A stretch of 64,000 nucleotides of DNA from Neisseria meningitidis. Lineage in GTDB: Bacteria > Pseudomonadota > Gammaproteobacteria > Burkholderiales > Neisseriaceae. The stretch spans positions 2,108,001-2,172,000 of the forward strand of contig NZ_LR134525.1 of assembly GCF_900638555.1 (NCBI RefSeq), written 5' to 3'. Below the pieces are notes generated by a model. That model was not told the origin of the DNA, searched no databases, and saw nothing but the letters and a program-made list of their open reading frames with translations. The translations under genes were made by a program, and so were the position numbers. This document shows, piece by piece, positions 10,971 to 24,505 of this stretch; position 1 is the stretch's first letter; each line of letters starts with the position of its first letter.

Positions 10971-12272
10971 ATGGCTATTTACCAATCAGGCGTGATTTTT
11001 GACCAAGTGGATACCGCCAATCCCGACTGCTGGACATTGGACGAATACGTCAAACGCGGCGGCTATACCGCCCTGCGTAAAATCCTGTCCGGAAACATCT
11101 CTCAAACCGATGTGATTGACGAAGTCAAAACCTCCGGCTTGCGCGGTCGTGGCGGTGCGGGCTTCCCGACCGGTTTGAAATGGAGCTTTATGCCCCGTTC
11201 CTTTCCGGGCGAAAAATACGTCGTTTGCAATACCGACGAAGGCGAGCCGGGTACATTTAAAGACCGCGACATCATCATGTTCAATCCCCATGCCCTGATC
11301 GAAGGCATGATTATCGCCGGTTACGCGATGGGCGCGAAAGCCGGTTACAACTATATCCACGGCGAAATTTTTGAAGGCTACCAACGCTTTGAGGCCGCTT
11401 TGGAGCAGGCGCGTGCCGCAGGCTTTTTGGGTAAAAATATTTTGGGTTCGGATTTTGAATTTGAACTCTTCGCCCACCACGGCTACGGCGCATATATTTG
11501 CGGCGAGGAAACCGCATTGCTCGAATCGCTGGAAGGCAAAAAAGGCCAGCCGCGCTTTAAGCCGCCATTCCCTGCTTCGTTCGGCCTGTACGGCAAACCG
11601 ACTACCATCAACAATACTGAAACGTTCTCCTCCGTTCCATTCATTATCCGTGACGGTGGACAGGCATTTGCCGATAAAGGTATTCCGAATGCAGGCGGTA
11701 CCAAATTATTCTGTATTTCCGGCCATGTCGAGCGTCCGGGCAACTATGAAGTGCCGTTGGGTACGCCGTTTGCCGAAGTCTTGAAAATGGCGGGCGGTAT
11801 GCGCGGCGGTAAAAAACTCAAAGCCGTCATTCCCGGCGGTTCGTCCGCGCCCGTATTGCCTGCCGACATCATGATGCAGACCAATATGGACTACGACTCG
11901 ATCTCCAAAGCAGGCTCCATGCTCGGTTCCGGCGCGATTATCGTGATGGATGAAGACGTGTGCATGGTCAAAGCCCTCGAACGCTTAAGCTACTTTTACT
12001 ACGATGAATCCTGCGGCCAATGCACCCCGTGCCGCGAAGGTACGGGCTGGCTCTACCGCATCGTCCACCGCATCGTAGAAGGCAAAGGCCGTATGGAAGA
12101 CTTGGATTTGCTGGATTCTATCGGTAACCAAATGGCAGGCCGCACCATCTGCGCTCTCGCCGATGCCGCCGTCTTCCCCGTCCGCAGCTTTACCAAGCAT
12201 TTCCGTGATGAGTTTGTGCATTACATCGAACACGGCGGACCGATGAAAGAGCATAAGTGGGGAGGGTGGTAA
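10971..12272 (+). CDS. nuoF: NADH-quinone oxidoreductase subunit F (51-kDa, NADH/FMN binding)
   Basis: A 433-residue flavoprotein where NADH is oxidised. Near the N-terminus LRGRGGAGFPTGLKW is the FMN/NADH glycine-rich loop. GYGAYICGEETALLESLEG lies mid-protein, and ESCGQCTPCREG near residue 350 ligates [4Fe-4S] N3. The ATG follows the repeat gap and has only a weak purine-rich site (AAACAGG). Its stop overlaps the ATG of an unrelated P-loop gene. Confidence 0.97.
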   Translation: MAIYQSGVIFDQVDTANPDCWTLDEYVKRGGYTALRKILSGNISQTDVIDEVKTSGLRGRGGAGFPTGLKWSFMPRSFPGEKYVVCNTDEGEPGTFKDRDIIMFNPHALIEGMIIAGYAMGAKAGYNYIHGEIFEGYQRFEAALEQARAAGFLGKNILGSDFEFELFAHHGYGAYICGEETALLESLEGKKGQPRFKPPFPASFGLYGKPTTINNTETFSSVPFIIRDGGQAFADKGIPNAGGTKLFCISGHVERPGNYEVPLGTPFAEVLKMAGGMRGGKKLKAVIPGGSSAPVLPADIMMQTNMDYDSISKAGSMLGSGAIIVMDEDVCMVKALERLSYFYYDESCGQCTPCREGTGWLYRIVHRIVEGKGRMEDLDLLDSIGNQMAGRTICALADAAVFPVRSFTKHFRDEFVHYIEHGGPMKEHKWGGW

Positions 12273-12709
12273 TGGTGGAAGCTAAAATTTTTATTCTATA
12301 CGGTGCAGCCAACAAAGGTAAGAGTACGACACTCAATACGCTTTTTAATCAGATTTGTTGGAAATTTTCTAAATTTCTAGTCTTTTTTGAAAGACATGGA
12401 AATGGCTTAGATTTTGTTGCAGTATTTGATCATGAAGGTCAGAGAATTGGTTTTTATTCATCTGGTGATAATGAATACGAGGTTAGGAGAAATTTATACA
12501 AACTTTATTCGCATAATTGTGATTTTATTTTTGGCACGTCAAGGACACGGGGTGGTAGTTGCGATGCAGTAGGATGTTATGCAGAGTTATTGCATGGCGA
12601 TGTAAATATAATTAATTGGTGTGAAAAGTTTGAGCCTACAGATGAAGACAATGAGCGCGCTGTTAAAGAGTTATTTAAGTCATTTAAAAATATAATAAAT
12701 GAGTTATAG
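12272..12709 (+). CDS. small P-loop protein of unknown function inserted after nuoF
   Basis: 145 residues. The N-terminus has a Walker A motif in IFILYGAANKGKSTTLNTLF (GxxxxGKST, residues about 9-18). No clear Walker B, switch or helicase motif follows. Cysteine- and histidine-bearing stretches such as GGSCDAVGCYAELLH are visible. The start ATG overlaps the nuoF stop and sits seven bases after GGAGGG, so it is translationally coupled to complex I genes. Its coding is clearly AT-richer than nuo, suggesting acquisition. I do not recognise a family beyond a P-loop NTPase. Confidence 0.65.
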   Translation: MVEAKIFILYGAANKGKSTTLNTLFNQICWKFSKFLVFFERHGNGLDFVAVFDHEGQRIGFYSSGDNEYEVRRNLYKLYSHNCDFIFGTSRTRGGSCDAVGCYAELLHGDVNIINWCEKFEPTDEDNERAVKELFKSFKNIINEL

Positions 12710-12766
12710 TTTTAGTTGGTTTTATATTGGTTAAAAGCAAAATGCTAAAAATTTAACTTTGCCGTC

Positions 12767-22394: not shown

Positions 22395-22715
22395 ATGTCA
22401 AACACACAAACCATCCGCTCTGCCGACTTCACCACTTCCCGCGCATGGGGCGCACTCGACATCGCCAATATGAACGGCACCACCGTGCGCCTGCACTGGA
22501 CGGACCAGCCCTACAAATGGCACGTCAACGACGGCGAGGAAGTGTTTGCCGTGATGGATGGCGAAGTCGATATGCACTACCGAGAAAACGGCGAAGAACA
22601 CATCGTTCGGTTGAAAAGCGGCGACATCTTCTACGCAGGAATCGGCACGGAACACGTCGCCCACCCGCGCGGCGAAACGCGGATTTTAGTGATTGAGAAA
22701 GAAGGCAGTGTTTAG
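22395..22715 (+). CDS. small cupin-domain protein
   Basis: A 106-residue single-domain cupin. Motif 1 is KWHVNDGEEVFAVMDGEVDM and motif 2 is LKSGDIFYAGIGTEHVAHP, so metal-binding-type H/E positions are partly kept. The substrate is unknown; related small cupins bind sugars or act as isomerases. It lies between nuoL and the DUF262 gene on the same strand, with GC content like the core genome rather than the neighbouring insert. The ATG is preceded by CTTGAGAAACA. Confidence 0.75.
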   Translation: MSNTQTIRSADFTTSRAWGALDIANMNGTTVRLHWTDQPYKWHVNDGEEVFAVMDGEVDMHYRENGEEHIVRLKSGDIFYAGIGTEHVAHPRGETRILVIEKEGSV

Positions 22716-22789
22716 GGCGGATACGCATAAGTATTATGTGCTTTTTCAGGTATCCTGAAAATCATAAATCTATCAACGAGACTTTAATC

Positions 22790-24505
22790 ATGGCAAATCT
22801 AAATGTGAGTAGTAAAAAAATTATTAATCTGCTAGGTAATCAAGATATGCAGGAAAAATATTTTATCATTCCTGAATATCAACGCCCCTATCGCTGGGAT
22901 ACCGAAAAATGCGCCGTATTATGGTCTGATATTGTGGATTTTCGCCAGTCGTCCACAGGAAAAAATGAAGAATATTTTCTTGGTACAATCGTTGTTTGCC
23001 CCAATGAAAAAGGTAATTTGGAAGTAATTGATGGGCAACAGCGTTTAACATCATTACTGCTGTTATTGCGTGCGTTTTATCGAGTTTTAGAGCAAACGGA
23101 AAGTACCCCCGATACCGCAGCCAAAATTACCACACTTAAAAGCAAAATTGCCCCCTGTATTTGGGATGTTGATGTTCTAACGGCTGAAATTACCGATAGA
23201 ACCGCAATCCGGCTGCATACGCAAGTTGCCACAGAAACAGATAACGAAATTTTGCACGAGATTTTGGCAAACGGTGAAATCTCAGAAGAGTGTCGTTCTA
23301 ATTACGCCGTTAATTATTTGTATTTCCTGAAACAGTGCCAAGAATACGCCAGAACCAACCCAATGGATTGGTATCATCTTTGTTTAACTATTTTGAATGA
23401 CTGTATTTTACTTCCGATTGAAAGTGACAGTTTAAATAGTGCATTAACCATATTTTCCACATTAAACGATAGGGGCTTGCCTTTGTCGGATGCAGATATT
23501 TTTAAAGCCAGGCTTTATAAGATGGCGCAGCAGAAAGATAAATTTGTTGAACAATGGAAGGAACTTGTTGCGTTGGCAGAGGGTGCATCTATTTCCGTAG
23601 ATGATTTGTTCCGCTATTACACCCATGTATTAAGGGCGAAAGAAAAGATTACGGATAAAGAAATTGGGCTTCGCCGTTTTTATACTGACAACCGAAACAA
23701 ACAGTTGGAAAACGAAAATTTGTTCAATCACTTAATTGAGCTGGCTGGATTTTGGCAGGATATTAACAACAGCAAAACTAACCAAGACGTGGAAACTTCG
23801 AACTTTGTAAATGACGAGGCGGCCAAGTGGCTGCAATGTCTGAATGTCTATCCTAATGAGTTTTGGAAATACGCCGCGAGTGTGTTCTTCATTGCAAACA
23901 AGGGTGCGCAATCCTTTAAAGATGATTTTGCAGCATTATTAAAACAGCTTACTGCATTTTTGTATGCTAAATTTTTAGTTGCGCCAACCGTAACCGCAAT
24001 TAAAGATGATATTTATAAATTATGTGTTGCGATTTATCACGGTGAAAAAAACGCTTTATCATATGTTATGCCTGCACCCATACACTATGAACAAAATACA
24101 GGACGTATAACTAAAGGGTTGTTAATGATTAATGCTTATCTATTTGATGAAAAGCAGAAATTATTGCCAACTAAAACTGAAATCGAACATATCTTTCCGA
24201 AAAAATGGCAGGAAACTAACTATAATGGTTGGTCAATCATAGATGCGGAACAATATTTAGAACAACTAGGTAATAAAATTGTTTTTGAAAAACGGTTAAA
24301 TATTCAGGCAGGTAACGGCTATTTTGGTAAGAAAAAGGAGCAATATCAAAAATCCGATATTGTTGAAGTGCGTGAATTAGCAGGTGAAAATGCCAATGAT
24401 TGGTTACCGAGTGATATTCAGAAACGCCAGCAGCAGATTGTGGATAGATTGAAACAGTTTTTCGATAATTGTTTTGAAGCAGCCAGCATCCCCAAAAAAA
24501 ATTAA
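22790..24505 (+). CDS. DUF262/DUF1524 GmrSD-like nuclease (putative restriction/defence protein)
   Basis: 571 residues from the ATG at 22790; a start at 22736 would add a non-homologous leader. The N-terminal half is DUF262 (ParB/Srx-like): FIIPEYQRPYRW near residue 25, YFLGTIVV and the diagnostic VIDGQQRLTSLLLLL near 80. FSTLNDRGLPLSDADIFKA follows. The C-terminal DUF1524/HNH part has EIEHIFPKKW, LGNKIVFEKRLNI and a late K/N-rich segment, with the key histidine and asparagine present. This is the layout of fused GmrSD type IV enzymes, which cut modified (e.g. glucosylated hydroxymethylcytosine) phage DNA. It is AT-rich, sits inside the nuo operon, and is probably acquired. Phage defence is inference. 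Confidence 0.8.
   Translation: MANLNVSSKKIINLLGNQDMQEKYFIIPEYQRPYRWDTEKCAVLWSDIVDFRQSSTGKNEEYFLGTIVVCPNEKGNLEVIDGQQRLTSLLLLLRAFYRVLEQTESTPDTAAKITTLKSKIAPCIWDVDVLTAEITDRTAIRLHTQVATETDNEILHEILANGEISEECRSNYAVNYLYFLKQCQEYARTNPMDWYHLCLTILNDCILLPIESDSLNSALTIFSTLNDRGLPLSDADIFKARLYKMAQQKDKFVEQWKELVALAEGASISVDDLFRYYTHVLRAKEKITDKEIGLRRFYTDNRNKQLENENLFNHLIELAGFWQDINNSKTNQDVETSNFVNDEAAKWLQCLNVYPNEFWKYAASVFFIANKGAQSFKDDFAALLKQLTAFLYAKFLVAPTVTAIKDDIYKLCVAIYHGEKNALSYVMPAPIHYEQNTGRITKGLLMINAYLFDEKQKLLPTKTEIEHIFPKKWQETNYNGWSIIDAEQYLEQLGNKIVFEKRLNIQAGNGYFGKKKEQYQKSDIVEVRELAGENANDWLPSDIQKRQQQIVDRLKQFFDNCFEAASIPKKN

What the first reader, a model, noticed from the sequence alone, without database searches (positions are those of the whole stretch)
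12272..24505. The complex I operon as a platform for accessory genes
Between nuoF and nuoM, seven non-respiratory genes sit in five gaps on the nuo strand: a P-loop protein, a GIY-YIG nuclease, an unknown 235-aa protein, Fic, an unknown 112-aa protein, a cupin and a DUF262/DUF1524 nuclease. Several have AT-rich coding unlike nuo. Some are coupled directly (the P-loop ATG overlaps the nuoF stop). A conserved, always-expressed operon is a safe landing site, and the mix of nuclease, Fic and P-loop genes looks like defence or effector cargo.
Basis: partly seen in the sequence, partly recalled or inferred. Interest (0 to 1): 0.8.

Follow-up and report, generated by a model that had tools for sequence, protein, structure and literature searches.

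The report
Complex I operon as cassette dock
In Neisseria bacteria the genes for a respiratory enzyme are separated by six bays where unrelated genes, many of them apparent phage-defence genes, are swapped between species, and the respiratory genes around the bays appear to be swapped along with them.

Summary
Seven non-respiratory genes lie on the nuo strand between nuoF and nuoM, but in four gaps, not five. In 44 Neisseria species genomes six junctions (E-F, F-G, H-I, I-J, K-L, L-M) hold changing cargo: 121 of 258 cells exceed 200 bp, against 4 of 288 at the other seven. Bay contents need at least 108 changes on an atp-gene tree, filled against empty 56. Cassettes can be 97-100% identical between species whose atp genes are 78-88% identical. 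In a 16-species clade nuoA-M is 77-85% identical to the window at four-fold sites whatever the species, while atp ranges 49-93% and nuoN is 54-65% in ten distant members. The bays also carry DNA uptake signals of another dialect. Best reading: minimal mobile elements, exchanged by transformation and recombination in nuo. That kind is known; six bays in one operon with a homogenised backbone was not found in my paper searches, but the key 2007 catalogue was not held. Cargo is mixed: I class 13 of 29 Pfam-matched clusters as nuclease, restriction, toxin-antitoxin or effector-like. Co-transcription was not tested.

The parts
10582..10970 (.). Bay E-F (389 bp): no gene found in the window; four DUS of the GTCGTCTGAA dialect and two dRS3-type repeats
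   Evidence: 98.5% identical to the N. gonorrhoeae locus; over 200 bp in 33 of 42 genomes
12272..12709 (+). Bay F-G cargo 1: P-loop protein, start codon overlapping the nuoF stop (TAATG)
   Evidence: no Pfam or NCBIfam family; in 3 of 43 genomes at this bay, the window included
12995..13264 (+). Bay F-G cargo 2: GIY-YIG domain ORF (89 aa, TTG start)
   Evidence: PF01541 E 5.7e-11; 96.3% nt identical to a 103-aa gene in the same bay of the N. sicca locus, atp 84.0%
16887..16965 (.). Bay H-I (79 bp, empty): inverted pair of GTCGTCTGAA-dialect DUS between nuoH and nuoI
   Evidence: 97.5% identical to G019 and G007, atp about 84%
17476..18183 (+). Bay I-J cargo: 235-aa all-helical protein of an unnamed widespread family
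   Evidence: among 83 Neisseriaceae genomes full-length matches in G000 and G005 only, partial ones in two more; whole bay 99.4% identical to N. bergeri, atp 92.2%
19226..19801 (+). Bay K-L cargo 1: NmFic-type Fic AMP-transferase
   Evidence: 191 of 191 residues identical to PDB 2g03 (NMA0004); NF046029 over its cut-off; other places
19925..20266 (+). Bay K-L cargo 2: 113-aa protein, same bay as Fic in the window, G022 and G039
   Evidence: no Pfam family
22395..22715 (+). Bay L-M cargo 1: cupin-like protein; relatives in bay L-M of G013 and bay E-F of G003
22736..24505 (+). Bay L-M cargo 2: GmrSD-type (DUF262/DUF1524) nuclease
   Evidence: PF03235 and PF07510 over cut-off; PADLOC HEC-06/Orf5/SspE relatives; a single-member cluster among the bay ORFs of 44 genomes
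7403..26038 (+). nuoA-nuoM backbone, homogenised across a 16-species clade
26048..27493 (+). nuoN, where four-fold identity is 54-65% in 10 distant members of the clade

Best explanation
The nuo operon of Neisseria carries six cassette bays, all at junctions without overlapping genes. A bay holds zero to several genes, mostly on the nuo strand. SHOWN: bay contents turn over between species; nearly identical cassettes occur in distant species; some gene families are found in different bays, and Fic also in the dcw operon and inside a type I restriction operon; nuo genes next to shared cassettes are more alike than elsewhere; nuoA-M behaves as a cross-species gene pool; bay sequences in several genomes carry DUS of a foreign dialect. 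INFERRED: released DNA is taken up by natural transformation (guided by DUS), recombination crosses over in the conserved nuo genes on both sides of a bay, and the whole segment (cargo plus flanking nuo DNA) replaces the resident allele. This is the minimal-mobile-element mechanism, run at six sites of one operon. Overlapping junctions stay closed because an insert would break reading frames. The operon tolerates cargo perhaps because Na+-NQR backs up complex I. The cargo probably rides the nuo transcript. Selection for defence-type cargo may drag nuo alleles between species.
For: Occupancy and turnover. Empty sites of 57, about 58, 80, 11, 2 and 95 bp in G014 against kilobase inserts in relatives. 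Cassette against core identity, e.g. K-L 99.0% against atp 87.7% (N. polysaccharea); C8, C18 and C20 pairs at 100% against 80.4-82.8%, all involving genome G045. 76 of 126 cluster-mate pairs with atp under 90% are more than 3 points more alike than atp. Families in more than one bay: 11 clusters, clearest C0 at 82% and the cupin at 76-78% aa. Fic in the dcw mraY-murD gap of G004, between HsdM and HsdS genes of G040, and in L020, Conchiformibius. Flank excess identity +0.79 with a shared cassette (n=42 pairs) against -0.63 without (n=480). AU test rejects the G000+G015 pairing in nuo blocks H-I, J-K, L and M but not A-E and F-G, the blocks beside the bays these two share. Four-fold data and nuoN break. 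Foreign DUS. Published: 7 of 14 nuo genes with signs of recombination in meningococcus (PMC3082526, passages); about two-fold anaerobic repression across the whole length of gonococcal nuo (PMC3032703, passages).
Against: One genome per species, so within-species exchange was not seen. Pairs in the flank test are not independent; I-J has one shared pair and L-M hardly differs (-0.15 against -0.47). The AU test does not reject the G023+G007+G019 group in five blocks and the group is recovered in the sixth; the four-species G000 group is rejected in two of six. nuo and atp identities still correlate (r 0.72). The dcw operon has bays without comparable backbone homogenisation (59-74% four-fold identity, 8 genomes), so bays alone do not cause it. 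One S10 junction, rpsJ-rplC, also varied (4 of 11 scored over 200 bp). GTC-dialect DUS also cluster elsewhere in the genome, and 7 of 16 genomes show no dialect difference (p over 0.1). 18 of 108 longest bay ORFs lie on the opposite strand, and four closed-junction cells exceed 200 bp (D-E three, G-H one). No transcript or transformation data of my own.
Confidence: 0.82

Rival explanations
1. Old fixed insertions, inherited vertically and lost here and there.
For: Some cassettes track clades, e.g. C0 and C8 in bays E-F and F-G of G006, G025 and G040, and E-F exceeds 200 bp in 33 of 42 genomes.
Against: At least 108 content changes on the tree; cassettes up to 100% identical between species with about 80% atp identity; compact operon in all 7 Snodgrassella loci, and 3 of 48 loci outside the Neisseriaceae (L034-L081, some partial) with any gap over 200 bp.
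Confidence: 0.05
2. Each cassette was put in by a dedicated element (IS, integron, dRS3 or filamentous-phage recombination); homologous recombination only spreads it later.
For: dRS3-type inverted repeats lie in bays E-F and F-G of the window. Something must make the first insertion, and some families change bays.
Against: No transposase, integrase or recombinase family among 55 of 111 cluster representatives scanned; 56 were not scanned. Empty and filled alleles compared in 21 loci differ over much of the spacer, in places even in the upstream stop codon, not at one fixed target.
Confidence: 0.3
3. The low divergence of nuoA-M reflects strong codon or protein constraint, not gene flow.
For: NuoA-M proteins are 97-99% identical within the clade, so constraint is real.
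Against: Against G015 (N. gonorrhoeae) nuoA-M is MORE divergent than atp or S10 (83 against 93 and 97% four-fold identity), against distant members far LESS. S10 genes are at 64-73% in the 8 distant genomes measured. The drop at nuoN inside one operon argues against a shared constraint. In the 11 genomes compared outside the 16-species clade nuo is near the control level.
Confidence: 0.06
4. The cargo serves complex I (assembly, regulation or protection) and sits there for function.
For: Strand bias (longest ORF of 100 aa or more on the nuo strand in 90 of 108 bays), start-stop coupling of the P-loop gene.
Against: 5 genomes have no bay over 200 bp; Fic also sits in dcw and in a type I restriction operon; no Pfam match of the scanned cargo points to complex I.
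Confidence: 0.05

Closest known systems
Minimal mobile elements (MME) of Neisseria (Saunders and Snyder 2002; Snyder et al. 2007; originals not held, definition seen in passages of PMC3082526 and PMC3898611)
   Same: Different whole-gene cassettes between two conserved genes, spread by homologous recombination in the flanks; often restriction-modification genes.
   Different: Six bays inside one operon, flanks that are themselves homogenised across 16 species, and foreign DUS dialect in the bays of several genomes. I could not check whether the list of over 30 sites already includes nuo junctions.
Neisserial dcw cluster divergence (Snyder, Shafer and Saunders; seen only as a reference title in PMC1538595)
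   Same: Variable genes in several junctions of a conserved operon; Fic in the mraY-murD gap of G004 and a GIY-YIG relative within 1 kb downstream of mraY in G011 and G006.
   Different: No comparable backbone homogenisation (59-74% four-fold identity over 8 genomes).
NmFic (NMB0255; PMC3667792, passages)
   Same: The window Fic is identical over 191 residues to PDB 2g03.
   Different: Nothing seen; what is added here is its mobile setting.

Membership tests
Minimal mobile element | Lies between two conserved genes | tested here: met
   nuo genes on both sides in 42-44 genomes, depending on the bay
Minimal mobile element | Different whole-gene cassettes in different strains | tested here: met
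   Met between species only, one genome per species; strains not tested
Minimal mobile element | No mobility genes of its own | tested here: inconclusive
   None among 55 of 111 cluster representatives with Pfam; 56 not scanned
Minimal mobile element | Brought in by homologous recombination in the flanks | tested here: met
   Indirectly: flank excess identity, AU rejections beside unshared bays; no experiment
NmFic class III Fic AMP-transferase | Signature HPFx[D/E]GN[G/K]R | tested here: met
   HPFLEGNGR; motif as in the abstract of PMC2686095 shown in the listing
NmFic class III Fic AMP-transferase | C-terminal inhibitory glutamate E186 | tested here: met
   Residue 186 of the translation is E; E186G construct named in PMC3667792
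NmFic class III Fic AMP-transferase | AMPylation activity | not testable with these tools
   Needs an assay
GmrSD-type nuclease (DUF262/DUF1524) | GmrSD_N and GmrSD_C domains in one protein | tested here: met
   132.4 bits (cut-off 33.2) and 63.5 bits (cut-off 23)
Integron cassette array | attC-like recombination sites and an integrase | not tested
   No search for attC was made; no integrase family among the 55 scanned representatives

The most novel reading that the evidence does not exclude
The nuo operon is a cross-species exchange hub: six bays share one set of conserved homology arms, so selection for swapped defence cargo drags the respiratory genes themselves between species. nuoA-M of the 16-species clade thus evolves largely as one shared gene pool while nuoN and the control operons follow the species. 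Bay DNA crosses the DUS dialect border in both directions.
Probability: 0.5. Interest if true: 0.75.

Novelty: new variant of a known kind. Interest (0 to 1): 0.62.

Why it matters
It ties three things usually treated apart: mobile defence genes, operon structure and gene flow across species borders. If cargo exchange drags core genes along, loci near such bays would mislead as clonal or species markers. The bays also list candidate defence and effector genes of unknown function, and the DUS dialect works as a natural dye for the direction of transfer.

Tried and rejected
Fold search of the 235-aa protein: a confident model (mean pLDDT 91.4) but no PDB match with E under 1; profile search of PDB sequences gave only two matches at E 0.51 and 0.67. 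Fold search of the P-loop protein: a weaker model (78.0; the other four models 40-47) and no match with E at or under 0.001, best a designed P-loop ATPase at 1.2e-3. PDB profile search of the 113-aa protein: none. Rfam on 7000-28000: no match at gathering score. Terminator scan: the paired DUS hairpins at 16888-16917 and 22348-22377 were reported only on the opposite strand; terminator-like sites in all 43 against 28.6 in shuffles, promoter-like 27 against 24.8. The PADLOC match of the P-loop protein to mad8 (E 1.6e-4) is too weak to use. Control ORFs were mechanical and include likely antisense ORFs at 97-100%; 5 to 11 of 34-55 control ORFs per genome (8 genomes) reached the nuo median, so I rely on named genes. 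In one search the nuoN value of G021 is a misplaced partial hit (29% aa; one search gives 65%), G026 has A-K only, G021 lacks M and G014 lacks B. Values below -300 bp (one M-N value, L122) were dropped; one search has misplaced negative dcw values too. Of the 11 clusters seen in more than one bay, C3, C6, C30, C31 and C34 are opposite-strand ORFs and may be spurious. My first count of 110 content changes treated ORF-less spacers of different length as different; pooled they give 108. The flank permutation (0 of 5000) ignores dependence of pairs, and the Poisson value ignores that DUS come in pairs.

Papers: PMC3082526, PMC3898611, PMC1538595, PMC2911385, PMC3338715, PMC3667792, PMC4269198, PMC9395523, PMC2784325, PMC5383966, PMC3382141, PMC3032703, PMC6232127 and PMC4138514 were seen as found passages only; PMC2686095 as an abstract start in a listing. 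In ten paper searches and those passages I found no description of cassette bays in the nuo operon; most listed papers were not opened. [quoted passage not shown] Snyder et al. 2007 and Saunders and Snyder 2002 were not opened; neither appeared in the searches.
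Full report
WHAT IS THERE. The window holds a complete nuoA-N operon on the + strand (7403-27493; Pfam). Seven other genes on the same strand sit in four of its junctions: F-G (P-loop, GIY-YIG), I-J (235 aa), K-L (Fic, 113 aa), L-M (cupin, GmrSD). The E-F junction (389 bp) and H-I junction (79 bp) carry repeats and uptake signals but no gene that I found. Five of the seven genes are AT-rich; in codon use the P-loop, 235-aa, 113-aa and GmrSD genes are farthest from nuo, GIY-YIG less so, Fic and the cupin near it. The Fic protein matches PDB 2g03 (NMA0004) at every one of 191 residues, and on an atp-gene tree the window's genome is sister to the N. 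gonorrhoeae genome, so the host is most likely N. meningitidis (inference; that NMA numbers belong to that species is recalled).

A PLATFORM, TESTED. Of 46 Neisseria species genomes searched, 44 have NuoH, the window's own included; I fetched the nuo region of the other 43 and measured every junction. Six junctions are open: E-F over 200 bp in 33 of 42, F-G 27 of 43, H-I 18 of 44, I-J 10 of 44, K-L 14 of 43, L-M 19 of 42. The other seven (A-B, B-C, C-D, D-E, G-H, J-K, M-N) exceed 200 bp in 4 of 288 cells (D-E three times, G-H once). Most closed junctions overlap or touch; M-N (about 9 bp as a rule) and B-C (1-13 bp) are closed without overlap, and K-L opens although its empty form can be only 2 bp, so spacing alone is not the rule. 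Mechanical ORF calling in the open bays gave 194 ORFs of 60 aa or more in 111 clusters, many single. The longest ORF is on the nuo strand in 90 of 108 bays where it reaches 100 aa. Five genomes have no bay over 200 bp; eight bays over 200 bp have no ORF of 60 aa.

CONTROLS. In 20 of these genomes the atp operon shows 0 of 140 junction cells over 200 bp. In S10-spc-alpha 23 of 26 junctions stay short, two are long but constant (rpsQ-rplN, secY-rpsM), and rpsJ-rplC varied (4 of 11 scored over 200 bp, the other 9 genomes unscored). The dcw operon is a second platform: murE-murF 17 of 20, murF-mraY 16 of 20, mraY-murD 15 of 20, murD-ftsW 9 of 18 over 200 bp. Outside Neisseria, nuo is compact where scored in 7 Snodgrassella loci, in Stenoxybacter, and in 45 of 48 loci outside the Neisseriaceae, but expanded in Alysiella, a Conchiformibius MAG and, at E-F only of the bays scored, a goat-rumen Neisseriaceae MAG. 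So the trait belongs to part of the Neisseriaceae, not to conserved operons in general.

CARGO TURNOVER. On the atp tree the bay contents need at least 28, 22, 17, 9, 13 and 19 changes, 108 in all, with ORF-less spacers pooled; filled against empty alone needs 56. Cassettes are often more alike than the species: K-L of the window against N. polysaccharea 99.0% over 1122 bp (atp 87.7%); I-J against N. bergeri 99.4% (92.2%); Fic against G021 97.0% (81.6%); C8, C18 and C20 reach 100% between G045 and other genomes at 80.4-82.8% in atp. Of 151 cluster-mate pairs in different genomes 126 have atp under 90%, and 76 of these exceed atp by more than 3 points. Eleven clusters occur in more than one bay, some by weak or short matches or on the opposite strand; the clear cases are C0, C7, C17 and the cupin. 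The Fic family also sits in the mraY-murD gap of the dcw operon of G004, between HsdM and HsdS genes in G040 (N. wadsworthii by sequence match), and in the Conchiformibius MAG. Of 55 of 111 cluster representatives scanned, 29 match Pfam, two below its cut-off (the cupin and a MORN repeat); I class 13 of these as nuclease, restriction, toxin-antitoxin or effector-like (GIY-YIG, Fic, GmrSD, DUF559, AAA_21, PIN, M78, DUF4411, X-Tfes, NgoFVII-like, Eco47II, C5 methylase, PDDEXK), the rest as metabolic or other (e.g. GFA, chorismate mutase, cation efflux, isochorismatase); this grouping partly rests on recall. None is a transposase or integrase. PADLOC adds support for Fic, GmrSD, AAA_21, M78, PDDEXK and the Eco47II pair, and none for GIY-YIG, PIN, DUF4411, DUF559, X-Tfes, the 235-aa, 113-aa and cupin proteins.

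BORDERS. I compared junction ends in 21 loci. Much of the spacer is exchanged, not a fixed target hit. The nuoH stop is TAA in most empty alleles and TAG in seven filled ones; NuoF ends KPNKWC in ten empty or otherwise filled alleles but KEHKWGGW, followed by TAATGG, in the window, G039 and G015 (P-loop cargo) and also, with one residue changed, before an unrelated gene in G023. The exchange thus reaches into the end of the nuo gene. At F-G the last bases before nuoG are nearly constant in empty and filled alleles.

THE BACKBONE MOVES TOO. In the 16-species clade, four-fold identity of nuoA-M to the window is 77-85% for all 15 others (G026 A-K only, G021 without M, G014 without B). For atp it is 49-93%, for S10 64-97% (12 measured) and for dcw 59-74% (8 measured). 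The N. gonorrhoeae genome is farther in nuoA-M (83%) than in atp (93%) or S10 (97%); distant members are far nearer. In the 11 genomes compared outside the clade nuo is near the control level. In 10 distant members nuoN is at 54-65% directly after nuoM at 66-90%. Over 120 pairs nuoA-M identity spans 91.4-96.7% (sd 1.5) and atp 81.4-98.7% (sd 5.2); the two still correlate (r 0.72), so the pool is not fully mixed. Flanks of shared cassettes are locally more alike (+0.79 against -0.63 points). AU tests reject the G000+G015 sister pair in H-I, J-K, L and M but not in A-E and F-G, the blocks around the two bays these genomes share; other named groups were mostly not rejected.

A TRACER DYE. The DUS variant GTCGTCTGAA occurs 13 times in the window, 12 of them between 8562 and 22375; AGGTCGTCTGAA occurs 97 times in the genome, 8 in the nuo operon where 0.9 is expected from an even spread. 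In the window's bays the count is 2 GCC to 10 GTC against 35 to 6 in control loci (p 2e-5). Genomes of the opposite dialect (G023, G007, G019) show the reverse excess, weaker (p 0.005-0.025). Of 16 genomes tested, 8 have p under 0.05, uncorrected, and 7 over 0.1. That such variants are species dialects of the DUS is recalled; the control loci show it here.

MECHANISM AND LIMITS. The best reading is minimal mobile elements at six sites of one operon, moved by transformation and recombination in nuo. Tolerance may come from redundancy: two of 46 genomes have no match to NuoH or NuoD but have NqrB (one of them is 85% complete), and gonococci have both nuo and nqr (PMC3032703 passages). Whether cargo is co-transcribed is open; that paper reports about two-fold anaerobic repression across the entire length of the gonococcal operon, which fits one transcript but did not meet its criteria for differential expression. 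Ten paper searches showed no description of nuo bays, but the central 2007 MME list was not available, so novelty is rated as a variant of a known kind.

Noticed in passing
dcw loci L197-L216; L279: The dcw operon is a second multi-bay platform (four often-filled junctions); a Fic relative (G004) and GIY-YIG relatives (G011, G006) lie just downstream of mraY there, but its core genes are not homogenised.
   Followed up: partly
G016 and G042 (genome search): Two Neisseria genomes (completeness 100 and 85) have no NuoH or NuoD match but have NqrB, so complex I seems dispensable in the genus.
   Followed up: partly
window 17476-18183: The 235-aa protein belongs to a family of at least 152 proteins (21 invariant columns among 52 aligned); this member has no Pfam, NCBIfam or PDB relative and a confident all-helical model.
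   Followed up: partly
window 12995-13264: The TTG start of the GIY-YIG ORF lies at the edge of the catalytic motif; the N. sicca relative is 103 aa, so the 5' end here may be degraded.
   Followed up: no
L119, L124, L131, bay L-M: An AAA_21 (PtuA-like) gene and a PIN-domain gene occur together in three genomes, a likely two-gene defence or toxin unit.
   Followed up: no
L122 and L137, bay H-I: A 454-aa protein with a weak X-Tfes XVIPCD match beside a 300-aa protein without family, resembling an effector and partner.
   Followed up: no
G000 chromosome 64-93 kb and 1581-1587 kb: GTC-dialect DUS cluster in other places too, which may mark further import islands.
   Followed up: no
L273, L274, L276: Fic copies of G011, G012 and the Conchiformibius MAG are listed with one in-frame stop in the match and may be decaying.
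   Followed up: no
window 3501-4500: A 30-33% GC stretch upstream of nuo, not examined.
   Followed up: no
S10 operon, rpsJ-rplC junction: The spacer varies from 84 to 2194 bp in 11 scored genomes and may be another bay.
   Followed up: no
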